From NCBI GenBank assembly GCA_018670095.1, contig JABHRR010000051.1:1-34852 (forward strand): a DNA stretch of 34,852 nucleotides, written 5' to 3'. The notes beneath the pieces were generated by a model. It ran no database searches. It saw nothing but the letters and a program-made list of their open reading frames with translations, and was not told where the DNA came from. This document shows, one piece after another, positions 5,209 to 34,852 of this stretch; within the stretch, counting starts at the first letter, position 1; every line of letters begins with the position of its first letter. The DNA comes from Candidatus Woesearchaeota archaeon (GTDB lineage: Archaea > Nanobdellota > Nanobdellia > Woesearchaeales > GW2011-AR9). The position numbers and the translations under genes were made by a program.

Positions 5209-6144
5209 ATGAATAAACAAAAGATAATTTTGGAACTGAATCACATCTTAAACACTTATAAGAAAAGAACACCCTGTTCCCAAATAAAAGTTCTTGAAGA
5301 TAGGAAATGGCTTCCATTATTTAATAATTCTAACTTGTCTAGTGAGTTTGCTTACTTAATTGCAAAAGTAATGGGTGATGGACATTTAGACTCTAATTTT
5401 ATAGTAAAGTTTTCTGGACAAGAAAAAGAACTTAAAAAATTAAAGAAAATAGTTTCTTCTATTTTAAACATTAATATTAAGAAATTTAAAATATTTACAA
5501 GTAAAGCAAAAGGAATTGCTTATACTTTAAATGTTAATGATGCTCTTCTTGGAAGAACATTGTTTTGTTTAGGGGCTCCAATGGGGAATAAAACAAAAAG
5601 CAATTTTTTAGTGCCAAATTGGATTATTGAATCTAAAAGGAATAGCCACTTGTTTTTACAAGGTTTATTAGAAGATGAACTTTCAACCGTTAAGATAGAA
5701 AAGAAAACTCATTCTAATAAACCAAGACTGAAGCTTGCTAAGTCTGAAGAATTATTACCTAATTTAAGAAAATTTTTAAATCAAATTAGGATGATGTTAT
5801 ATGCTTTCAATGTAAATTGTAGTGTAATACCTAAGAAAGCTAATCATAGGGATGATCAAACTACTAGAGACTTGTATTTCGATATTCACAGAGATAAAGA
5901 AAATATTATCCGATTCGGTGATAATGTGGGATTTAGGGTTTATGAAGAGAAATTAAAAAAACTAAATGAATGTGTTGAAATTCTAAAAAAGACAAGACAT
6001 ATTAGAAAACCTGTGATTGATGTTTCAGAAATTGTTAGATTAAGAAAAATGGGGCATAGTATTAGAAAAATAAGTAGGGAAGTAAATTTAAACAAAACTT
6101 CTGTTCATAATGTTATTAAAAAAAGTGCGGGGGAGGAGATTTGA
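5209..6144 (+). CDS. LAGLIDADG-type homing endonuclease-like protein with C-terminal HTH
   Basis: A 311-residue protein with two spaced LAGLIDADG-like helices: FAYLIAKVMGDGHL (about residues 47-60) keeps the acidic residue and GDG end, while FLQGLLEDELST (about 148-159) is more divergent, so activity is uncertain. The last 45 residues form a basic resolvase-like helix-turn-helix (RLRKMGHSIRKISREV...). Free-standing archaeal LAGLIDADG proteins are either mobile endonucleases or domesticated regulators. The last 19 bases of the gene lie antisense to the 3' end of tRNA-Leu, and the HTH-coding segment contains that tRNA's T-run terminator on the other strand. Arrival near the tRNA followed by tail capture is a possible explanation. 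Confidence 0.7.
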   Translation: MNKQKIILELNHILNTYKKRTPCSQIKVLEDRKWLPLFNNSNLSSEFAYLIAKVMGDGHLDSNFIVKFSGQEKELKKLKKIVSSILNINIKKFKIFTSKAKGIAYTLNVNDALLGRTLFCLGAPMGNKTKSNFLVPNWIIESKRNSHLFLQGLLEDELSTVKIEKKTHSNKPRLKLAKSEELLPNLRKFLNQIRMMLYAFNVNCSVIPKKANHRDDQTTRDLYFDIHRDKENIIRFGDNVGFRVYEEKLKKLNECVEILKKTRHIRKPVIDVSEIVRLRKMGHSIRKISREVNLNKTSVHNVIKKSAGEEI

Positions 6145-6147
6145 ACT

Positions 6148-6178
6148 TTTCCGCAAAAAGTATTTTCACACTTTCTGT
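6148..6178 (-). other. Non-canonical tRNA intron in the T arm of tRNA-Leu
   Basis: The bulge-helix-bulge fold is complete. The central 4-bp helix is UUCG (6184-6181) with CGGA (6153-6150). The 5' bulge is GG^A (cut between 6179 and 6178) and the 3' bulge is AA^A (cut between 6148 and 6147). An 8-bp inner helix joins 6177-6170 to 6161-6154 with an 8-base loop. This is the standard substrate geometry of the archaeal splicing endonuclease. Confidence 0.85.
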
Positions 6179-6202
6179 CCCGAACCCACTAAGAGACAGG
6201 AT

Positions 6203-6234
6203 ATCTTTCGTTGGCCGAAACCAATTGTTGATGA
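6203..6234 (-). other. Canonical-position (37/38) intron of tRNA-Leu
   Basis: The central helix is CUUA (6240-6237) with AAAG (6208-6205), three of four pairs. The 5' bulge is AG^U and the 3' bulge is AU^A, giving cuts after 6235 and before 6202. The intron also has a small UUGG/CCAA hairpin (6224-6221 with 6214-6211). Confidence 0.8.
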
Positions 6235-6423
6235 CTTAAGTCCTGCGCATTTGACCAGACTTTGCTACCCCCGCATGTCTAGAACACAGGTGTCTTTTTA
6301 TTAGTGGGTGAAGATGTAAAAATGGGGGTTATTTATAAAACTTATCTTAAAAGATTTGTTTATTGAAAATATTCCCTCACACTTTTTTTCATTAATTATT
6401 TAAACTAGCGAACTTCTGGTTAT

Positions 6424-6741
6424 ATGATGAAGCCAATCCCTAATTCCATTGTTGTAAATACTGGTGAACAAGTTACAGTTACAAATACTATTGATGATTT
6501 TTTTGTTGAAACTGAACGGTTTGTTCTGGATAATTATAATGTGCAAAAATCAGAGTTTGAAATTAAATCTGGTGGGTTAGCGGCTGATTTTTCTCAAATG
6601 TCAAATGACCGAATTACTTATTTATGTTATCAAGATATGGTTCTTGCTAGTGTTTTTGAAACTCGAACAGAATTTAATTATGTGAGATATACATTTTTTA
6701 GAAATTTAGGGTCGCTTAATGAATTAACGTCTCGAGAATAA
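6424..6741 (+). CDS. Hypothetical protein, 105 residues
   Basis: A short soluble protein that I do not recognise. It starts MMKPIPNSIVVNTGEQ and ends LGSLNELTSRE, with no signal peptide, membrane span or Cys pair. Predicted alternation of strands and turns is all that can be said. It is supported as a gene by a TATA box (TTATTTAAAC, 6396-6405) about 20-25 bases before the ATG, fitting the leaderless pattern seen elsewhere, and by codon choice like its neighbours. The next gene has its own TATA box, so this one is probably transcribed alone. Confidence 0.6.
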   Translation: MMKPIPNSIVVNTGEQVTVTNTIDDFFVETERFVLDNYNVQKSEFEIKSGGLAADFSQMSNDRITYLCYQDMVLASVFETRTEFNYVRYTFFRNLGSLNELTSRE

Positions 6742-6786
6742 TTTTTTTTTCTAAACAATTATATACTCTTAACATTTCTTTTAGTT

Positions 6787-7461
6787 ATGCAAGAAGATCA
6801 CAAACACGAAGAAGATCAAGAAGAACATCATGAAGAACACTTTGATGATCATCAATCTTGGTATAAAGGTCCGATGAAAGTTATCATGGGCTTATTTCTG
6901 ATATTGATATTGGTTCTCTGGTTAGTTCCGTATTACGGGATCAAACAGAATCCGGAACCTAATTATCTGCCGACGATAGCAGACTTAAATATTCCGGAAA
7001 TGGTTATTCCTGAGATAAATTCTGGGAAAATAACTGCTTATGTCTCTGTAACTCCAGAAATCAAACAAATTGCTGACAAGATTGTGACTTTATCTTGCCA
7101 AGAGACACACAAAGTTTGTAATGCGAAAGCAATGTTTTATTTTGTACAGAAGAATTTTAATTATCTTAATGATCCTTTAGCTTTTGAGTATTTCAAAACT
7201 CCTCAGGAATCACTGAAATCAGATTCTGGAGATTGTGATGATAGTTCAATATTATTATCTTCGTTATTACAATCAATCGGTTTACAGACAAGATTTGTTT
7301 TTGTTCCTGGACATGTTTATGTTCAAGTGAAACTTTCAGAAGCAGTTTCTGCTTACAAAACAGAAGACGATTGGATTAACTTAGACACTACTTGTTTTAA
7401 TTGTGAATTTGGCGAGATTCATTATAGTTATGTGGATAGTCATAAGAGTTATTTAGGTTGA
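6787..7461 (+). CDS. Membrane-anchored transglutaminase-like cysteine protease/transferase
   Basis: A 224-residue protein with a His/Glu/Asp-rich N-terminal tail (residues 1-28), a single membrane helix (about 33-50) and an exported transglutaminase-like domain. The catalytic triad is visible: Cys150 in GDCDD, His176 in PGHVYVQ and Asp200 in NLDTT. Two extra cysteines after the Asp (TTCFNC) and two before the catalytic Cys (SCQETHKVC) could form disulfides outside the cell. The His-rich tail would be cytoplasmic and could bind metal. The TATA-like ATTATATAC (about 6758-6766) lies some 25 bases upstream. The substrate is unknown; cell-surface protein processing or crosslinking is a reasonable guess. 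Confidence 0.8.
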   Translation: MQEDHKHEEDQEEHHEEHFDDHQSWYKGPMKVIMGLFLILILVLWLVPYYGIKQNPEPNYLPTIADLNIPEMVIPEINSGKITAYVSVTPEIKQIADKIVTLSCQETHKVCNAKAMFYFVQKNFNYLNDPLAFEYFKTPQESLKSDSGDCDDSSILLSSLLQSIGLQTRFVFVPGHVYVQVKLSEAVSAYKTEDDWINLDTTCFNCEFGEIHYSYVDSHKSYLG

Positions 7462-19277: not shown

Positions 19278-19322
19278 TGGCAGTTTATTTTGAATGTTAG
19301 TTGGGGCTGTAGCTCAATCTGG

Positions 19323-19349
19323 ATTGTCTTTTTTTAGAGGCAAGGGAAA
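19323..19349 (+). other. Non-canonical tRNA intron in the D loop of tRNA-Phe
   Basis: A bulge-helix-bulge-like fold: 5' bulge GG^A (cut after 19322), 3' bulge AA^G (cut after 19349), central helix AUCU (19317-19320) with GGGA (19344-19347), three pairs of which two are G-U, and inner helix UUGUC/GGCAA (19324-19328 with 19339-19343). The fold is of the relaxed kind. Confidence 0.72.
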
Positions 19350-19367
19350 GAGAGCACTAGACTGAAG

Positions 19368-19387
19368 ATACAATTGTTGTAATTGAA
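19368..19387 (+). other. Canonical-position (37/38) intron of tRNA-Phe
   Basis: A 20-base insertion with inner helix UACAA/UUGUA (19369-19373 with 19377-19381) and bulges AG^A and AA^A. The central helix is weak (C-G and G-U only). A shift of the intron by one base is equally compatible, since A flanks both cuts. Confidence 0.7.
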
Positions 19388-19475
19388 ATCTAGGTGTTCG
19401 GGGTTCAAATCCCCGCAGCCCCACATTTTTCTTAACGTTAATCTTTTTAATTTATTAAATAATATTGATATTGTA

Positions 19476-24134: not shown

Positions 24135-27113
24135 ATGGATAGTAGATTTAATCAATTGTTTTCAGTTTTTGCTATATTTATTGTAGTGATTGGTTTCGGA
24201 GTTTTACTTAATTTAGATGATTCTCAGCTTAATAATTCTGGATTAGATTTTAAAAATGTATTTGGGTCAGAAGGAAATGTTCTTACCGGTGCGGTTATTG
24301 GGATAGAGTCTGAAGAGGATTTAGTAGTAGAAGATATAGTAATTGAAGAAGAAATTGTAATTGAAGAAAGTGGGGATTTAGGATTACAAGTAGATTGTGG
24401 TGACGGACCCGGCACTTGTGCTTGTGGTGATACACTTAAAGAAAATTATAATTTATCTTTTGATTTAAGTTGTACTGATAGTGGTATAACTATTGGTGGT
24501 CCTAATCTTGTTTTTGATTGTAGGGGGCATAGTATTACTGGGGATGGTGGTGGTGGTCCGGATACTGGTTTTATAAATACTGGGGGTTTTAGAAATATCA
24601 CCATTAAGAATTGTGTTATCGGGGGATTTGCAAAAGGCATTGAGTTTATGCATGCATTTAATGCTACTATCTGGAATAATACTATTGGCCATATTAATCT
24701 TACTGAACCTAATTGGGGGATTAGTTTTGCTAATTGTTCTGGTGCAAATATTTCTAATAATATAATTACTAACATGACTTCTACTGCTATAGATAGTGTT
24801 TTTGGTATTCAGTATGCTGAAGTTCCTACTGTTGCTAGTCTTAATGATGTTGTTATTTATGGGAATAATATTTCCCGAATTTATGGTACTAATGAGTTTC
24901 TTCCAATTGCGATGGGTATTGGTGATGCAAATTTTCCTACTCTTGATAATGTTAAAATCGATAATAATATCATTGAGAATATTAATTGTACTACTGGTAG
25001 TACTGGTCTTTGTGCAACTTTTGGTGGTGGTATTGGTCTTAAAATTAGCAGTGGAACAAATTTTAATATTTCCAACAATCAATTTAATTATTTGGGGACG
25101 GGGATTATGCCTGACCAACCTAATTTAAGAATTGTTAATAATACTTTTAAATCTAGTCTTAATGGTATTTATAATTTAAATAGTATGGGGGCTGCAACTA
25201 CTCGTTTTAATCATAGTTGGATTGTGAACAATACTTTTGATGGGTTAACACAGGGTGTTTATCTTCTTGGAAATAATCATAATAACACTTTTTTGAATAA
25301 TAATTTTAGTAATATTTTACAGTTTTCAATTTTAGATTTTAGTGTTGGTATTACTAATAATACTGTGATTTACAATAGTTCTATGGGTGAAATCAAATGG
25401 GATAAAGCAAATATTACTACAAATCTTACATTGCATGTAAATTCTTCAGACCTTTACATTGAGAATGGTACGATTGGGTTAATTAATGATCTTAACACTT
25501 TTAAGTTGAATGATACTGCTCAAATAACATTTAAAGGTTTATTTTATCCAGTAATTCCTTGGTTAATGAAAGATGGTGTTAGATGTGATAATGGTGATGC
25601 TTGTAATATTAGTTATGATTCTAGTCTTGGAGTTTTAACAGCTAACGTGAGTTCGTTTAGTAATTATACATTACAAGAAACAACCCCTCCTTATTTTGAT
25701 CCTACTCCTATGGATCAATTAGTTCAATATAGTGATCCATTTACTTATGATGTGGATGGTGTAGATGATACTGCTGTGGGGAATTATTCGGTTAATGATA
25801 CTACTCAATTTACCATTAATGGTAGTGGTGTGATTACTAATCTTATTCCTTTACATTACGGTCCAATAACTCTTAACATATCTTTGAATGATACTTTTAA
25901 TAATGTTAATAGTACGGTTATTATTGTTGATGTAACTGATACTACTCTTCCAGTTTTCACTGAACCACCTGCTGCTCAAAGTGTTGCTGATGATGTAAAT
26001 TTTGTTTATGACCTTAATGCTACAGATAATTATAATATGAGCAGTTTTACTGTTAATGACACTACTCGATTTAGAATTAATTTTAGTGGTCATTTGTCTA
26101 ATAATACTATTTTAACTGTTGGCGACTATAATATTAATGTTACTATTAATGATACTTTTAACAATAGTGATTCTCTCTTTTTCACTTTAACTGTTACAGG
26201 TAAATCAGCTGTAACAGCTGCTGCTGCTGCTGCAGCAGCCAGTAGTAGTTCTTCTAGTAGTTCTTCTAGTAGTGGTGGTTCTGGTTGGGGTATTTGTGGA
26301 GATACGCTTTGTAATGATGGTGAGACCTGTACAAATGATGAAAATATTAATGAGAATGGTGGTGCTTGTTTCAAAGATTGTGGGTTCTGTCGAGAGGATA
26401 GTCTTGTTGCAGAATTAGTTGATGGAGAAAAAGATGAAGAAGAAAAAAGTTCTACTGTAAAAAGTGTTACGGATAAAGTTGGTGAAAAAGTCTTTGGAGC
26501 AACAGGATGGGATAAATACCGGGATATTATTGTTAGTTTAAGTGGGATTCTGGTTGGGATTTTTGTTCTGGTAATTATTGGCAGTTTATTTCTTAGGTCA
26601 CATCATGATCTTTTGTTGAAAAGAAAATATAATACCGGGGAAAGTAGTTGGTCAAAGATTAAAATGTTTTTTAGGGATAATCAGAAAAGCGTGAAATTAA
26701 TTTTAATGATGATTGTTGGTTTATTATTCTTAGGGTTGTTAGTTTATTTAATTTATTCTTCATGGTCTCAAATTGTTTCATTTTTAAGCAAGATATGGTC
26801 TTGGTTGTATAATATTGGAGTTTTGAATCGATTTAGAGGCATTTTTATAGCATTAATTATTTTGCTTGTTATTGGTGCTTTGTTTATTAGCTCTCATCAT
26901 GAATTTTTGTTGAAAAAAAAATATAAAACGGGACAAGTTTCTAAAAAATTGAAAATTAGAATGTTTTTAAGAAAACACAAAGAAATTGTTAAATTGGTTT
27001 CAGTAATTGTTGTGATCTTATTAGTTTTGGGAGTTATAATTTATTTAATTTATTTTTATTTTTCAGCTATTAGTTCTTTTTTTAGTGGGATTTGGTCTTG
27101 GTTGTTTAATTAG
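24135..27113 (+). CDS. Surface protein with parallel beta-helix, two Ig-like repeats and four C-terminal membrane helices
   Basis: A 992-residue secreted membrane protein. An N-terminal helix (about 10-26) precedes LTGAVIGIE and an acidic stretch. From CGDT (about 97) to about 515 run short N-I-(T/S)-x-N-N-x-(F/I) turns typical of right-handed beta-helix (PbH1) domains. Two cadherin/Ig-like repeats of about 88 residues follow, each beginning at a P-x-F motif. Next come an Ala/Ser/Gly low-complexity linker (about 693-717), a Cys-rich CGDTLCNDGETC segment and four membrane helices arranged as a tandem duplication of a two-helix unit (about 800-877 and 902-980, each with SHH(D/E) and WSWL). N-x-S/T sequons are very abundant, fitting heavy N-glycosylation. 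Carbohydrate binding or attachment is a guess. Confidence 0.82.
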   Translation: MDSRFNQLFSVFAIFIVVIGFGVLLNLDDSQLNNSGLDFKNVFGSEGNVLTGAVIGIESEEDLVVEDIVIEEEIVIEESGDLGLQVDCGDGPGTCACGDTLKENYNLSFDLSCTDSGITIGGPNLVFDCRGHSITGDGGGGPDTGFINTGGFRNITIKNCVIGGFAKGIEFMHAFNATIWNNTIGHINLTEPNWGISFANCSGANISNNIITNMTSTAIDSVFGIQYAEVPTVASLNDVVIYGNNISRIYGTNEFLPIAMGIGDANFPTLDNVKIDNNIIENINCTTGSTGLCATFGGGIGLKISSGTNFNISNNQFNYLGTGIMPDQPNLRIVNNTFKSSLNGIYNLNSMGAATTRFNHSWIVNNTFDGLTQGVYLLGNNHNNTFLNNNFSNILQFSILDFSVGITNNTVIYNSSMGEIKWDKANITTNLTLHVNSSDLYIENGTIGLINDLNTFKLNDTAQITFKGLFYPVIPWLMKDGVRCDNGDACNISYDSSLGVLTANVSSFSNYTLQETTPPYFDPTPMDQLVQYSDPFTYDVDGVDDTAVGNYSVNDTTQFTINGSGVITNLIPLHYGPITLNISLNDTFNNVNSTVIIVDVTDTTLPVFTEPPAAQSVADDVNFVYDLNATDNYNMSSFTVNDTTRFRINFSGHLSNNTILTVGDYNINVTINDTFNNSDSLFFTLTVTGKSAVTAAAAAAAASSSSSSSSSSSGGSGWGICGDTLCNDGETCTNDENINENGGACFKDCGFCREDSLVAELVDGEKDEEEKSSTVKSVTDKVGEKVFGATGWDKYRDIIVSLSGILVGIFVLVIIGSLFLRSHHDLLLKRKYNTGESSWSKIKMFFRDNQKSVKLILMMIVGLLFLGLLVYLIYSSWSQIVSFLSKIWSWLYNIGVLNRFRGIFIALIILLVIGALFISSHHEFLLKKKYKTGQVSKKLKIRMFLRKHKEIVKLVSVIVVILLVLGVIIYLIYFYFSAISSFFSGIWSWLFN
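26208..26282 (+). repeat. Ala/Ser-coding trinucleotide low-complexity tract
   Basis: In-frame GCT/GCA then AGT/TCT repeats code for eight Ala, eleven Ser and two Gly. Such a tract is prone to in-frame length change and acts as a flexible linker between the Ig-like region and the Cys-rich segment. Confidence 0.7.
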
Positions 27114-28533: not shown

Positions 28534-29019
28534 TTGAAAGTACAAAAAGAAGAGGAAATAGTAAAAGTAATCTCTCGGCTAGCTAATCTTCTCTCTGATG
28601 AAAACAAAAAAGCGCTTGCTAAAGAACTTGTTGGAGCTGTAAAAGAAGATAAAGTAAGTCTTCCAATTTCTATTTTTAAAACAAAATTGTCTGCTTTAGG
28701 TGCAATTGTTGTTTATCTTAAAGATGTTCAGAAATTAAAAGTTAAAGAAATTGCATCGTTATTAAATAGGGAATTAAGCACGATTTATACCACCTATGAA
28801 TTGGCTAAAACTAAGTTGAAGAAAGAGATTGATATCTCTGATGATTCCGTATTAGTTCCATTATCTATTTTTTCTAATCGTAAATATGCAGTTCTTGAAT
28901 CTTTAGTATTTTATCTTAAAAATGAAAAGAAATTTTCTATGACTGAAATTAGTAAAATTCTGAATAAGAGTTATAGCACGATTAAAACTTCTAATAAGAG
29001 GTATAATGATAAGAAATAA
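28534..29019 (+). CDS. Regulator made of two tandem helix-turn-helix repeats
   Basis: A 161-residue protein starting with TTG (28534). After an N-terminal helix (residues 1-38) come two copies of a roughly 55-residue unit: LPISIFKTKLSALGAIVVYL with KVKEIASLLNRELSTIYTTY (about 42-95), and VPLSIFSNRKYAVLESLVFYL with SMTEISKILNKSYSTIKTSN (about 106-158). Each second half is an HTH resembling sigma-70 region 4. Two HTH domains in one chain fit binding to the paired sites 21 bp apart in its own promoter. Its last 14 bases overlap the start of the giant surface-protein gene, so both are likely one operon. I know no named family; DNA binding is inferred. Confidence 0.72.
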   Translation: MKVQKEEEIVKVISRLANLLSDENKKALAKELVGAVKEDKVSLPISIFKTKLSALGAIVVYLKDVQKLKVKEIASLLNRELSTIYTTYELAKTKLKKEIDISDDSVLVPLSIFSNRKYAVLESLVFYLKNEKKFSMTEISKILNKSYSTIKTSNKRYNDKK

Positions 29020-32000
29020 TAAAAAAGAGGGCTGGAAGAGGAAAGCTGAGAATATTAGTTCAGGAAATAAAGCTTTCTTAGTCTTATCATTAGTCTTAGC
29101 TTTCTTTGTTATCTTTTCATTAAGTTATGGTTATTTGAATGATTCTGACTTTGGTAATTATGAAACTAATTTAATTACTGGTGCAGCTATTGGAATACAA
29201 GATCCGGGTGTTGTTGGAGAACCTGTTATCGTAGAACCGATTGTTGAAGAGCCAGTGATTGAAAATGTCGTTGAAGATGTTGGTGTTAGTGAAGATGTTA
29301 ATATTGGCGTTAGTGAGAGTGAACAGGGTTTGGGTCTGGCTGCTGTTAATACTTGTAATACTTGCGGTGATTGTCGTGATAAAGCAGTAGCGGGCGTTAA
29401 CTTACAATTAACAGCAAATATCGTGAATTTAACTGGAAATTGTATTGAAACTACCGTTGGAGATTTAGTCATTGATTGTAAAGGATATAATATCACAACT
29501 GATAATGATTTTGGAATTGATATTGCTTTCGGAGACAATAATGTTACCATTAACAATTGTAGTTTTTATAATGCGGGTAGGGGCGTACAAGCTCTTAGCC
29601 ATAATGTTACTGTTGATAATTCTTCATTTTATCATAATAATATCGGTTATGATGCAAGTGGAACTGATCATCTGATTGTAAACAATTATTTTTATAATAA
29701 TACTGAAGGGATTAGTCTTAATGATGCTCATAACGTTGTAGTTAGAAATAATGTTATTATTGGTCATGGTAATGATGATGGGATTGTTAATTCTGCTTCG
29801 CCAGATTATGTGACTATTGATGGTAATAGCATTTATAATACTACTTTTGCCATTGTTTTAGTTTCTGGTTCTGAGAAAACTAATGCTAGAATTGTTAATA
29901 ATTATATTTACAATACTACTTCACAAAGTGTGCGTATAGGGGAATTGGAACCAAATTTATATTTTGGAAATAATACTATTAATCTCTCTGAGAATGATTG
30001 TTTTGAAATTGCTTCTGGTTCTAGTAATAATGTTAACCAAACATTTATTGATAATAAGTTTTTGAATTGCAGTGCTTTATCATTAGATATACAATTTTCT
30101 AGTACTTGTACAGACTTTTATTTTATTAACAATAGCATTGATCCAACTGTTCAATTAAGGTATGATCAAAATTGTCCTGCATATTTTATTAATAATTCGT
30201 TTAATAAAAGTTGGATTAATCTGCCTACTGCTATTGGTAGGACTAATGCAAAGTTTACAGTGCAATGGTATTTAGACGTACATGTTCAGGATACTGCTGC
30301 TGCTGCTATTGCAAATGCTAATGTTTCAGTGTTTAATGTTACTGGGGATTTGTTTAATATTAGTCAATCTGATGCGAATGGTAATGCTCCAAGATTAGTT
30401 GTTACAGAATTTTATCAGAATAATACTAATGTTAAGTTCTATGAAACACCGCACAATATAACTGCTAATTTGACAGATTATATCATAAATTATACTTCTG
30501 TTAATTTTACTAACAATGAGAGCACTATACTGACGATTGTCTTACCTTCAGCTGCAACTAGCTGTGGTGATACAATTACTGCTACTACTACTTTAACTGC
30601 TGCTTTAAATGGTTGTACTGGTGATGGGATTACTATTGGTGCTTCAGATATTATTCTTGACTGTGCTGGTTATCAGATTGATGGGGATGGAGGTGGTCCT
30701 GACACGGGTGTTTTAGATAGTGGTGGTAGCAATATTACCGTTAAGAATTGTGTAATCAAAAATTTTGGAACGGGGATTAAATTTGAACAAGTGGTTAATG
30801 CTACTATCTGGAATAATACAGTTGGACATATTAATCTTAGCCAACCAACTTTTGGAATTAATTGTGCTAATTGTTCTGAGGCAAATATTTCTAATAATAT
30901 TATTACTAATATGACCTCTAGTGCTATTGATAGTGCTATTGGTATTTTGTATGCTGAAGCACCTAATAGTGCTCTTTATGATGCTGTTATTTTCGGAAAT
31001 AATATCTCTAAAATTTATGGTGTTGATGATTTTCCTCCTTTTGCTATTGGTATAGGGGATAATAGTATTCTTGATCTTGACAATGTTAAAATTGATAATA
31101 ATATTATTGAAAATATAAATTGTACTTCTGCTAGTGGTGGTTCTGTTTGCGAATCTTTTGGTGGTATTGGGATTAAGATCCGTTCCGGAACAAATGTTAA
31201 TGTTACTAACAATAACCTGAGTTATTTGGGAACAGGAATTCTACCTGCCCAATTTGGTTTAAGAATTGTTAATAATATCTTTAAACATAGTATGAATGGT
31301 ATTTATGCATTAAATAATATAGGATCAGCTAGTACTCGTTTCAATCATAGTTGGATTGAAAATAATACTTTTGATGGATTAAATCGAGGCGTATATCTTT
31401 TTGAAAATAATCATAATAATACATTTTTGAATAATAATTTTAGTAATATTTTGGAATTTTCTATTCGAGATGATACTTATGGAATTATTAACAATACTTT
31501 GATTTACAATAGTTCTATAGGAGAAATTAAGTGGGATAAATCTAATATTACTACAAACATTACTTTAGGAGTTAATTCATCTGATCTTTATATTGAAAAT
31601 GGTACAATTGGTTTGATTAATGATATTAATACATTTAAATTAAATGATACTGCTCAAATAACTTTTAGGGGATTAGCTTATCCTGTTACTCCACAACTAT
31701 TGAAAGATAATGTTAGATGTGATGATGGAAATACTTGTAATATTACTTATGATTCTACTCTTGGAGTTTTGATAGCTAATATTAGTAGTTTCAGTAATTA
31801 TACATTACAAGAGGGAACTCCTCCTTACTTTGACCCTACTCCAACAAATCAGACGGTCCAATATATTAGTGAGTTTAATTATGATGTTAATGGAACTGAT
31901 GATACAGCTATAGGGAATTATTCTGTAAATGATACTGCTCAGTTTAGAATTAATGGAAGTGGTATGATTAGTAATGCTACTCATTTACATTATGGGTTTT

Positions 32001-34852
32001 ATGGTTTAAATATATCTATTAATGATACTTTTAACAATGTTAATAGTACAATAATTTTCATCAATGTAACTGACACTACTTTACCATATTTTAACCCTAC
32101 TCCTACAAATCAAACTGTCCAATATTCATCTAATTTCTTTTATGACATAAATGGTTCTGATAATTATAACATCAGTAGTTACTCTGTTAATGACACTATT
32201 CAATTTAAAATTAATAGTAGTGGTGGTTTGACTAATGTTAGTACTCTTCATTATGGTGTGATTCCAATTAATATTAGTATTAATGATACTTTTAATAATA
32301 CTAATAGTACAATTATATTTGTTAACATCACAGATACTACTGCTCCAACATTTAGTCCAACGCCAAGTGATCAGAGTGTTCAGGTTGACAATCAGTTCTT
32401 GTACGATGTAAATGCTACGGATAATTATAACATTAGTAGTTTTACTGTGAATGATACTACCTTGTTTAAGATTAATATTAGTGGTACTATTTTGAATAAT
32501 ACTATTCTTGTAGTTGGAACTTATAATTTGAATATTAGTGTTAATGATACGTTTAATAATACTAAATCTAGTGCGATTATTGTTACTGTTACTAGTGCCC
32601 CTCCGCCCGCTGAAGAAGATGGTGGTAGTTCTTCAAGACCCACTCCTACTCCTATTCCAATTAGACCTACTCCTACTCCTGTTCCAATTAGACCTACTCC
32701 ACCACCGGTAGATCCGAGAGATGTTCTTACAGAAAGAGAAGTTCAGGAGATTCTTTCTGATATGCGTGTTGATATTAGGGTTCCACCTACTGAAAGAGTG
32801 GTTACTGATCCAGTCAAGGAGGGACCAATTGCTGATAGAGGCGAAGTTCAAAGAAGAGCAATATCGGATGTTGAAAGAGTATTAGTGGAAATTTATAACC
32901 CAGGTGACAAAGATTTAGTAGTTACGCCTAGATTAAGAGAAGATAAATTTGAACTTAAAGATGAGGAAAGGGTTGAAGATATTTTACGTGAGAGATTACT
33001 TGATGAGTTTAAAGATATTAATGAAGATGAACTTCGACAAAAAATTGAGGAACGTAAAAAAACTGTTGCTTTGATTGAAAGAGAAAATGTTGATTTTATT
33101 AGTGTTGGTAAAACTGCAAGTTTCTTTAGAGGAGAAGTGGAGATGTATTCTGGTGATCATACCTCTGGAAGATTCTTAAGAAATTCATTATTAACTGAAG
33201 AGATTGTTGTTAAGCCTAAAGAAACTTTAGAAACAGAATTATTCTTAAAAAGAGGGATCTCATTAAATCCTGAAGATATAGAAATAATTTTAGAATCAAA
33301 AGGTGTTTTATTAGAAGAGAAAAAGATAGAACCAGATGATGGAAGTTTGATTGGTACAGATATTGACTTTGGTGAAGAAGATAATATCATGGATGTTTAT
33401 GTGTTAATACCTAAAGAGGTTTCTGCGGTAGAGGGTGAAAGTAAATATCATCTTGAAATGGATATTAATCAGCGTGCTTGGGAACAAAAAGATCTTGAAA
33501 ATATTATTGTTCCAAAATTTGTTAGTTCGTTTGCTGAATTTTATGGTCCTTATGATGTCTTGCCTGATGAAGGGGCTTTCTTGGCACAGGAAATAGTCTA
33601 CAAGTTTGATCCTAGAAGTGATTATGTTATCAAAAGTAGAATCTACAAAGACGGAACACTTGTTTCAGAGCATGAATTTGAACGCCTTGCTATAGAGAAA
33701 GTTGCAAAAGATGAGTTTTATGATTCTCCTGCTTTAGTGGGTAGGGCATTTGGTACGGCAGTAAAATTCGTACCATTTGGTTATCGTGCTTATTGGATGG
33801 CTTTAGCGGTTTTATTCCTCTTAATTATCATTACTATTTATTTGGGAATAAGATTGTATAAAATATATTGTTGTAAAACCATCAAGAGAAAAGGAGTATT
33901 TGATGATTTAGAAGAAGCAAAGATTGAATTGACTAAAAAGATTAAAGTAGCTCCTACATTCAAAAGAGGAAAAATTGCTTCTTTAATTATTGTTAAGCGT
34001 CGTTTAATTAAAGCAGCTTTACTAATCTCTTTTGCAATAACGTATCCATTCGTTGCTTTGTATCGTGGATTTAAATTTGTTAAAGACTTGATTGTTCGAC
34101 AGTTTATGAAATTGTTCAGACATTCTACTAAGATGTCTGCAGAGGTTAGTGATAATTATGCTGATGCTGTGCGTGATAATAATCGTTTCGTAAGAAAAGA
34201 GATTAGGCATACTGAGAAGAAGTTGTTTAAGTTCTTATTAGCAATTGGATTATCTGTTCGAGCAGCTAAGAACTGGATTAAACGACAGTTCAGGAAATTG
34301 TTCAGACGTTCTGCTAAGATGTCTGCAGGGGTTAGTGATAATTATGTTGAAGCTGTTCGTGATAATAATCGTTTTGTAAGAAAAGAAATTAGACGCACTG
34401 AGAAGAAGTTGTTCAAGTTCTTATTAGCAATTGGACTCGCTATTGGATTAGCTCTTCGGGCAGCTAAGAATTGGACTAAGCGACAGTTCAGGAAGTTGTT
34501 CAGAAGAACTGTTAAAGTTTCTGAGAAAATTGAAGATCATTCATTAGCTGTTGTAAAGAGTAGTAAGAAATTTGCAAAGAAAGAAATTAAGCATACTGAG
34601 AAGAAGTTATTTAAGTTCTTATTAGCGATAGGATTATCTCTACGTGCAGCTAAGAATTGGATTAAACGACAGTTCAGGAAATTGTTCAGAAGAACTGCGA
34701 AGATGTCTACAAAAGTTAGTGAACAATCTTCTAAGGCTGTGCGTGATAATAATCGTTTCGTAAGAAAAGAAGTTAGACGTACTGAGAAGAAGTTATTTAA
34801 GTTCTTATTAGCGATAGGATTATCTCTACGTGCAGCTAAGAATTGGATTAAA
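29006..34852 (+). CDS. Giant surface protein: two beta-helix regions, three Ig-like repeats, TM, C-terminal 62-residue repeats (3' end outside window)
   Basis: The frame is open from ATG 29006 to the window end, 1949 codons. Order: N-terminal helix (about 23-44), LITGAAIGIQ and an acidic V/E/P stretch (to about 105), CNTCGDC, beta-helix 1 (about 118-415), an Ig/carboxypeptidase-regulatory-like domain (about 422-513), CGDT and beta-helix 2 (about 518-930, closely similar to that of the 24135 gene), three Ig-like repeats of 86-88 residues (about 940-1198), a Pro/Thr-rich linker (about 1205-1230), a charged domain of about 360 residues with no recognised fold, a membrane helix (about 1595-1617), a second hydrophobic stretch near 1672, then 62-residue repeats from about 1698. 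Sequons are abundant. Surface adhesion or host contact is inferred. Confidence 0.82.
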   Translation, partial: MIRNNKKEGWKRKAENISSGNKAFLVLSLVLAFFVIFSLSYGYLNDSDFGNYETNLITGAAIGIQDPGVVGEPVIVEPIVEEPVIENVVEDVGVSEDVNIGVSESEQGLGLAAVNTCNTCGDCRDKAVAGVNLQLTANIVNLTGNCIETTVGDLVIDCKGYNITTDNDFGIDIAFGDNNVTINNCSFYNAGRGVQALSHNVTVDNSSFYHNNIGYDASGTDHLIVNNYFYNNTEGISLNDAHNVVVRNNVIIGHGNDDGIVNSASPDYVTIDGNSIYNTTFAIVLVSGSEKTNARIVNNYIYNTTSQSVRIGELEPNLYFGNNTINLSENDCFEIASGSSNNVNQTFIDNKFLNCSALSLDIQFSSTCTDFYFINNSIDPTVQLRYDQNCPAYFINNSFNKSWINLPTAIGRTNAKFTVQWYLDVHVQDTAAAAIANANVSVFNVTGDLFNISQSDANGNAPRLVVTEFYQNNTNVKFYETPHNITANLTDYIINYTSVNFTNNESTILTIVLPSAATSCGDTITATTTLTAALNGCTGDGITIGASDIILDCAGYQIDGDGGGPDTGVLDSGGSNITVKNCVIKNFGTGIKFEQVVNATIWNNTVGHINLSQPTFGINCANCSEANISNNIITNMTSSAIDSAIGILYAEAPNSALYDAVIFGNNISKIYGVDDFPPFAIGIGDNSILDLDNVKIDNNIIENINCTSASGGSVCESFGGIGIKIRSGTNVNVTNNNLSYLGTGILPAQFGLRIVNNIFKHSMNGIYALNNIGSASTRFNHSWIENNTFDGLNRGVYLFENNHNNTFLNNNFSNILEFSIRDDTYGIINNTLIYNSSIGEIKWDKSNITTNITLGVNSSDLYIENGTIGLINDINTFKLNDTAQITFRGLAYPVTPQLLKDNVRCDDGNTCNITYDSTLGVLIANISSFSNYTLQEGTPPYFDPTPTNQTVQYISEFNYDVNGTDDTAIGNYSVNDTAQFRINGSGMISNATHLHYGFYGLNISINDTFNNVNSTIIFINVTDTTLPYFNPTPTNQTVQYSSNFFYDINGSDNYNISSYSVNDTIQFKINSSGGLTNVSTLHYGVIPINISINDTFNNTNSTIIFVNITDTTAPTFSPTPSDQSVQVDNQFLYDVNATDNYNISSFTVNDTTLFKINISGTILNNTILVVGTYNLNISVNDTFNNTKSSAIIVTVTSAPPPAEEDGGSSSRPTPTPIPIRPTPTPVPIRPTPPPVDPRDVLTEREVQEILSDMRVDIRVPPTERVVTDPVKEGPIADRGEVQRRAISDVERVLVEIYNPGDKDLVVTPRLREDKFELKDEERVEDILRERLLDEFKDINEDELRQKIEERKKTVALIERENVDFISVGKTASFFRGEVEMYSGDHTSGRFLRNSLLTEEIVVKPKETLETELFLKRGISLNPEDIEIILESKGVLLEEKKIEPDDGSLIGTDIDFGEEDNIMDVYVLIPKEVSAVEGESKYHLEMDINQRAWEQKDLENIIVPKFVSSFAEFYGPYDVLPDEGAFLAQEIVYKFDPRSDYVIKSRIYKDGTLVSEHEFERLAIEKVAKDEFYDSPALVGRAFGTAVKFVPFGYRAYWMALAVLFLLIIITIYLGIRLYKIYCCKTIKRKGVFDDLEEAKIELTKKIKVAPTFKRGKIASLIIVKRRLIKAALLISFAITYPFVALYRGFKFVKDLIVRQFMKLFRHSTKMSAEVSDNYADAVRDNNRFVRKEIRHTEKKLFKFLLAIGLSVRAAKNWIKRQFRKLFRRSAKMSAGVSDNYVEAVRDNNRFVRKEIRRTEKKLFKFLLAIGLAIGLALRAAKNWTKRQFRKLFRRTVKVSEKIEDHSLAVVKSSKKFAKKEIKHTEKKLFKFLLAIGLSLRAAKNWIKRQFRKLFRRTAKMSTKVSEQSSKAVRDNNRFVRKEVRRTEKKLFKFLLAIGLSLRAAKNWIK
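34097..34852 (+). repeat. Tandem 186-bp (62-codon) repeats within the giant surface-protein gene
   Basis: Four units begin with CGACAG at 34097, 34283, 34481 and 34667; the next would begin at 34853, just past the edge. Spacings are 186, 198 and 186 bases, the 198 unit having an in-frame AIGL duplication. The consensus includes RQFRKLFRR, AVRDNNRFVRKE, TEKKLFKFLLAIGLS and RAAKNWIK. In the third unit the DNNRFVRKE part is replaced by a different Lys-rich sequence. Units are highly similar at base level, a sign of recent expansion or gene conversion. Confidence 0.85.

What the first reader, a model, noticed from the sequence alone, without database searches (positions are those of the whole stretch)
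6126..6274. tRNA-Leu(UAA) with a second intron splitting the T stem
The unspliced T arm cannot pair (AAAAG against CUCCU), while removal of 31 bases restores GGGAG/CUCCU. The insertion itself folds into a textbook bulge-helix-bulge: a 4-bp central helix with all positions paired, 3-base bulges on opposite strands cut as GG^A and AA^A, and an 8-bp inner helix. Multi-intron tRNAs with introns outside the anticodon loop are mainly known from Thermoproteales; finding one in what looks like a DPANN archaeon is unusual and implies a splicing endonuclease with relaxed specificity.
Basis: partly seen in the sequence, partly recalled or inferred. Interest (0 to 1): 0.75.

Follow-up and report, generated by a model that had tools for sequence, protein, structure and literature searches.

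The report
Mobile-nuclease-linked tRNA-Leu with two introns
A leucine tRNA gene in a tiny uncultured archaeon really is interrupted twice. In this archaeal order such odd tRNA interruptions tend to sit beside genes for homing endonucleases that run into the tRNA gene, which points to a DNA-cutting selfish gene as the way archaeal tRNA introns are gained.

Summary
Confirmed: window 6126-6274 (minus) is tRNA-Leu(UAA) with a 32-nt intron at 37/38 and a 31-nt intron at 51/52 in the T stem. A congener (G001) lacking both introns encodes exactly the predicted 86-nt mature tRNA. The T-stem insert forms a 3-4-3 bulge-helix-bulge. No other tRNA-Leu(UAA) was found in this 84%-complete genome. The host order is Woesearchaeota-like DPANN; there T-arm introns are common (18 of 51 tRNA-Leu genes), so 'unusual' holds only against the literature. 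'Relaxed endonuclease' is not required: the genomes carry one short alpha4-like EndA, and 28/32 noncanonical introns have a perfect core. New: ORF 5209-6144 is a LAGLIDADG homing endonuclease whose stop codon lies in the tRNA T-loop, 3 bp from the intron. All nine relatives adjoin a tRNA-Leu. Two further nuclease groups behave alike: HEG2 with 8/9 introns (4/4), and HEG3, which runs into tRNA 5' ends (24/28 versus 9/326 controls), mostly with D-arm introns (19/24). Nuclease and intron co-vary in the genus for all three pairs. Likely mechanism: homing by exon-overlapping nucleases installs spliceable mini-introns. Cleavage and splicing are inferred; a partial precedent exists in Caldiarchaeum (2012).

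The parts
6126..6274 (-). tRNA-Leu(UAA) gene, two introns, no encoded CCA
6203..6234 (-). intron 1, 32 nt, canonical position 37/38 (core 3/4, outer helix 6 bp)
6148..6178 (-). intron 2, 31 nt, T stem 51/52 (core 4/4, 10 inner bp, no outer helix)
   Evidence: absent in G001
6181..6184 (-). 5' strand of central BHB helix (exon UUCG)
6150..6153 (-). 3' strand of central BHB helix (intron CGGA)
5209..6144 (+). HEG1: LAGLIDADG homing endonuclease with C-terminal HTH, convergent with the tRNA; the last 19 bp lie in the tRNA gene (antisense of acceptor 3' strand, T stem and T loop)
6142..6144 (+). HEG1 stop codon TGA inside the T-loop exon, 3 bp from intron 2

Best explanation
The gene makes an ordinary tRNA-Leu(UAA) after EndA removes two BHB introns and RtcB joins the exons (splicing inferred from structure, exact intronless orthologs and the presence of EndA and RtcB genes). 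The T-stem intron is most likely a mini-intron installed by homing. The adjacent LAGLIDADG nuclease HEG1 would cut the T-arm region of intronless tRNA-Leu genes. Repair from a HEG1-carrying chromosome would then copy the nuclease gene and the intron together, and the intron would make the allele uncuttable while BHB splicing keeps the tRNA functional. The nuclease gene lies beside the intron rather than in it, overlaps the conserved exon and ends 3 bp short of the intron, so the two should be inherited together. Shown: adjacency in all relatives, exon overlap, LAGLIDADG fold, co-variation of nuclease and intron in the genus, and the same pattern in two further nuclease groups. Inferred: DNA cleavage, gene conversion, and that HEG1 is responsible for the 51/52 intron in particular.
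For: Intron. HEG1 fold: best PDB hits are the archaeal intron-encoded nucleases I-Tsp061I and I-DmoI (model pLDDT 85); NCBIfam match to an RtcB intein, E 2e-21. HEG1 linkage: nine close homologs (G000, G002, G043, G112, G213, G145, G085, plus L139 and L140), all next to a tRNA-Leu in at least three arrangements; T-stem intron in 4/9 (3 of 8 lineages) versus 2/47 without HEG1 (p 0.018 by lineage). HEG2: all 4 testable loci have an 8/9 intron versus 4/52 others (p 2e-4). HEG3: stop codon within 60 bp of a tRNA 5' end in 24/28 versus 9/326 control stops (p 7e-26); Rfam finds no tRNA at 18 EndA control loci; D-arm intron in 19/24 versus 8/50 (p 2e-7). Empty site: G001 has peptidase, intronless tRNA-Pro, L37Ae; G000 and G002 have HEG3 and a D-loop intron at the corresponding tRNA-Pro, with the same flanking genes seen in G002. 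Direct repeats of the tRNA 5' half flank HEG3 in several loci; in three Gln loci they are exact over 22 nt and end at about the splice site.
Against: For HEG1 the pairing with a T-stem intron is partial: G213, G145, L139, L140 and G085 have HEG1 without it, and G019 and G048 have the intron without HEG1. HEG1 copies show no clear duplication of the tRNA 3' end (only L140 is suggestive). Sample sizes for HEG1 and HEG2 are small. The D-arm scoring and the comparison sets were made by me after seeing the pattern, and the D-arm comparison mixes tRNA species. No cleavage or RNA data.
Confidence: 0.55

Rival explanations
1. The introns are genuine but unrelated to the nuclease. tRNA genes are simply a frequent landing site for homing endonuclease genes, and the introns spread by another route (reverse splicing, or transposition as proposed for Thermoproteales).
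For: HEG1 occurs without T-stem introns and such introns occur without HEG1; 37/38 introns are common everywhere.
Against: Side and position agree: 5'-side nucleases go with 8/9 or D-arm introns, and all three nuclease-intron pairs co-vary within one genus. Exact 5'-half repeats end at about the D-loop splice site.
Confidence: 0.3
2. The introns protect tRNA genes against integrating elements, as suggested by Randau and Soll; the nuclease genes are the attackers and the introns are host-selected resistance rather than cargo.
For: An intron inside a recognition site would block cutting; 8/9 introns also occur without an adjacent HEG2 (G028, G048).
Against: Nuclease and intron are found together and as one physical unit, with the HEG3 stop codon inside the tRNA-Pro intron. 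Resistance alone does not predict co-inheritance.
Confidence: 0.12
3. The gene is a decaying or unspliced tRNA, made non-functional by the T-arm insertion.
For: No RNA data; MAG assembly.
Against: Only copy found, exact 86-nt mature identity with congeners, and an intact BHB conserved in G002.
Confidence: 0.03

Closest known systems
Archaeal BHB tRNA introns at noncanonical positions (Thermoproteales, Thaumarchaeota, N. equitans, ARMAN-1/2)
   Same: Short inserts bounded by a bulge-helix-bulge, more than one per gene, T-arm positions included.
   Different: Host lineage not covered in the held literature I searched; EndA appears to be a single alpha4-like chain without CSL/ASL; one relative (L138) shows four introns in one tRNA, whereas PMC8450103 states up to three.
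Caldiarchaeum subterraneum tRNA-Thr(GGU) insertion (Sugahara et al. 2012, PMC3293823)
   Same: tRNA 5' fragment, then an 813-bp ORF, then the full tRNA with a D-arm (24/25) intron; intron gain through a mobile element proposed there.
   Different: Its ORF was read as a putative recombinase and linked to pNOB8-type plasmid integrases; here the ORFs are LAGLIDADG nucleases, recur across a whole order and several tRNA species, and overlap the tRNA. Whether that ORF is also LAGLIDADG was not tested.
Archaeal rRNA BHB introns encoding LAGLIDADG nucleases (I-DmoI, I-Tsp061I)
   Same: Nuclease fold, BHB splicing, assumed homing.
   Different: Here the nuclease gene is outside the intron, beside or overlapping the exon.
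Collaborative homing / free-standing HEGs of T4-like phages
   Same: Nuclease gene next to its presumed target, with an intron that it does not lie in.
   Different: Group I introns and phage genes there (from general knowledge); protein-spliced BHB mini-introns in cellular tRNA genes here.

Membership tests
Archaeal BHB tRNA intron | 3-nt bulges around a 4-bp central helix | tested here: met
   4/4 core, 10 inner bp; outer helix absent
Archaeal BHB tRNA intron | Removal restores a normal tRNA found uninterrupted at those sites in relatives | tested here: met
   86/86 identity with G001
Archaeal BHB tRNA intron | Splicing endonuclease and RtcB ligase in the genome | tested here: met
   EndA (cut by the contig start) and RtcB (partial match only)
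Archaeal BHB tRNA intron | Excision seen in RNA | not testable with these tools
   no transcriptome
Broad-specificity EndA (CSL or ASL type) | (alpha-beta)2 or epsilon2 make-up with an extra loop | tested here: not met
   one short chain per genome, no loop-sized insertion against the M. jannaschii chain; N-terminus missing in G000 itself, G002 used
LAGLIDADG homing endonuclease | Two LAGLIDADG motifs and fold | tested here: met
   motifs AYLIAKVMGDGHLD and FLQGLLEDELST; PDB fold hits I-Tsp061I, I-DmoI. HEG2 and HEG3 pass Pfam LAGLIDADG_3; window HEG1 does not pass a Pfam cut-off
LAGLIDADG homing endonuclease | Cuts the allele lacking the element | not testable with these tools
   needs enzyme assay
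Classical mobile BHB intron | Nuclease encoded inside the intron | tested here: not met
   intron 31 nt; HEG1 lies outside it
Integrase-type tRNA element (SSV / pNOB8) | Tyrosine recombinase next to the tRNA | tested here: not met
   Pfam hits to LAGLIDADG or HTH only in the ORFs scanned
Split (trans-spliced) tRNA | Halves encoded apart | tested here: not met
   one contiguous gene

The most novel reading that the evidence does not exclude
Woesearchaeal LAGLIDADG genes that overlap tRNA genes form a distinct class of mobile element. They insert at a tRNA loop, bring their own copy of the interrupted tRNA half and leave a spliceable BHB mini-intron, and they are the main source of noncanonical tRNA introns (possibly of split tRNAs) in these archaea.
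Probability: 0.45. Interest if true: 0.9.

Novelty: new variant of a known kind. Interest (0 to 1): 0.78.

Why it matters
How archaeal tRNA introns are gained and moved is a long-standing open question (PMC4496867 says little is known of their transmission; PMC3293823 proposes mobile elements from one locus). If these nucleases are the agents, the question becomes testable with one enzyme and one tRNA gene fragment. It would join homing endonucleases, BHB splicing and possibly split-tRNA origins in one mechanism. It also shows that a common tRNA finder can miss such genes: ARAGORN found no tRNA in this window although two are present.

Tried and rejected
RF00005 over the genome missed the window's own tRNA-Leu; the census of all tRNAs in G000 is therefore incomplete and I give no genome-wide intron rate. 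A possible split tRNA at C13 (L017) was tested by searching for its 3' half; nothing convincing was found. A mirrored duplication of the tRNA-Leu 3' end beside HEG1 was sought: absent in the window and in most relatives, suggestive only in L140. My first control for tRNA adjacency was biased by tRNA-centred loci (13/219) and was replaced (9/326); some of those nine are themselves other nuclease ORFs. Pfam alone did not identify HEG1; NCBIfam and the fold did. BHB boundaries for some D-loop introns of tRNA-Gln remain uncertain by a few bases.

Full report
OBSERVATION. The minus strand of 6126-6274 encodes tRNA-Leu(UAA). Rfam RF00005 reaches 29.4 bits on the unspliced gene, with two T-stem pairs marked broken. 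ARAGORN finds nothing unless the 31 bases 6178-6148 are removed. The insert forms a 3-4-3 bulge-helix-bulge: UUCG/CGGA core, bulges GG^A and AA^A, ten consecutive inner pairs, no outer helix. Chance is low: 20 of 200,000 shuffles reach a 4/4 core with 8 inner pairs.

COMPARATIVE PROOF. In relatives of the same order, orthologs were aligned with an intron-aware script. G000 and G002 carry introns at 37/38 and 51/52. Congener G001 carries neither, but has one at 8/9. All three give an identical 86-nt mature tRNA. Of 51 tRNA-Leu genes, 18 have T-arm introns: T stem in G000, G002, G019, G043 and G048; T loop in the others, G017 being seen by eye. Of 32 noncanonical introns, 28 have a perfect 4/4 core and all have at least 3/4; of 40 introns at or next to 37/38, 17 are perfect. 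One relative, L138, has four introns in one tRNA-Leu, including 51/52.

HOST AND SPLICING ENZYME. Named relatives are Woesearchaeota and Nanoarchaeota MAGs. The genome has one PF01974 hit, cut off by a contig start. Relatives have one short chain each with few exceptions. It resembles the N. equitans catalytic subunit and M. jannaschii EndA, with no insertion of CSL or ASL size (loops described in PMC12397907). An alpha4 enzyme is therefore inferred. Because the introns have regular cores, relaxed specificity is not needed to explain them, though the missing outer helix leaves this open. RtcB is present as a partial match.

THE NEIGHBOUR. ORF 5209-6144 (+), 'HEG1', runs convergently into the tRNA. 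Its last codons are the antisense of the acceptor 3' strand and T stem, and its TGA stop (6142-6144) lies in the T-loop, 3 bp from intron 2. It has two LAGLIDADG motifs, an NCBIfam match to an RtcB intein, and a confident model (pLDDT 85) whose best PDB matches are I-Tsp061I and I-DmoI. Strong homologs were found at nine loci in the order and in GTDB genomes; all adjoin a tRNA-Leu, either convergent, downstream or upstream. Four of nine (three of eight lineages) have T-stem introns against 2 of 47 without HEG1 (p 0.018 by lineage). This pairing is suggestive, not strict.

TWO MORE CASES. HEG2, a different LAGLIDADG gene (Pfam LAGLIDADG_3), lies directly upstream of tRNA-Leu in G001, G010, G207 and G219, all with an intron at 8/9 (9/10 in the alignment of G010); two further copies sit at contig ends (p 2e-4). 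HEG3 occurs in the window's own genome: on contig C49 its frame enters tRNA-Pro and stops inside that gene's D-loop intron. In congener G001 the locus has the flanking genes seen in G002 (Xaa-Pro peptidase, L37Ae), no nuclease and an intronless tRNA-Pro, 73/75 identical to the predicted spliced form; the two differences form one compensated acceptor pair. In G000 the contig begins just before HEG3, so only the L37Ae side is visible there. Across the order, 24 of 28 testable HEG3 relatives end within 60 bp of a tRNA 5' end (Gln, Pro, Val, Ser, Gly) against 9 of 326 control stops. An independent Rfam scan found tRNAs directly 3' of the nuclease at 9 of 18 such loci and none at 18 EndA loci. D-arm introns occur in 19 of the 24 (scored by eye) against 8 of 50 tRNA-Leu genes.

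FOOTPRINT OF INSERTION. Upstream of HEG3, a second copy of the tRNA 5' half is present in L190, L191, L192, L196, L205 and L207, and in shorter or weaker form in L199, L202 and L213. In L192, L196 and L205 the repeat is exact for 22 nt and ends at GGTCAA, at or within a base or two of the intron's likely 5' splice site. This suggests that a unit of nuclease, tRNA 5' half and mini-intron was inserted at the D-loop. For HEG1 no such repeat is clear.

MECHANISM. The simplest reading is homing: the nuclease cuts an intronless tRNA gene, repair copies nuclease and mini-intron, the intron blocks re-cutting, and BHB splicing keeps the tRNA alive. Shown: physical linkage, overlap, co-variation in the genus, statistical association, insertion footprints for HEG3. 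Inferred: cleavage, conversion, splicing, and the causal role of HEG1 for the 51/52 intron.

LITERATURE. Multi-intron tRNAs are known from Crenarchaeota, N. equitans and ARMAN (PMC4033280); up to three introns per archaeal tRNA are stated in PMC8450103. Sugahara et al. 2012 (PMC3293823) describe in Caldiarchaeum a tRNA-Thr 5' fragment, an 813-bp ORF and a tRNA with a 24/25 intron, and propose intron gain by a mobile element of pNOB8 type. That is the same anatomy with a different enzyme assignment. My searches of the held library found no report of homing endonucleases tied to archaeal tRNA mini-introns; subscription papers are not covered.

Noticed in passing
window 19303-19423 (+): A second tRNA (looks like Phe, GAA) with apparent inserts in both the D-loop and the anticodon loop; ARAGORN misses it, Rfam finds it. 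Exact BHB boundaries not settled.
   Followed up: partly
L138 3684-3900 (G112): tRNA-Leu(UAA) with four introns (8/9, anticodon stem, 37/38, 51/52), next to a HEG1 relative.
   Followed up: partly
L017 (G000:C13:3177-3232): tRNA-like 5' part with a GGC (Ala) anticodon that breaks off in the T loop; no 3' half found nearby or by pattern search.
   Followed up: partly
L020 (G000:C7:5474) and L022 (G000:C84:3595): Further tRNAs of the same genome with an anticodon-loop intron plus an apparent T-loop intron.
   Followed up: partly
5' flanks of L200, L202, L206, L209, L211, L212 and HEG1 loci L138, L116: A recurrent ACTGGACA-like motif upstream of the nuclease genes; possible promoter or element-end signal.
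   Followed up: no
L109, L114: Other LAGLIDADG ORFs distantly related to HEG1 also appear to end within 60 bp of a tRNA 5' end, so the pattern may extend beyond HEG1-3.
   Followed up: no
window 6424-7461 versus L084: tRNA-Leu is inverted relative to a conserved neighbour gene between G000 and G001, a local rearrangement at this locus.
   Followed up: no
window 24135-27113 and 29006-34852: Large surface-protein-like ORFs with related repeats; the second ends in a repeated RAAKNWIKRQFRKLFRR module.
   Followed up: no
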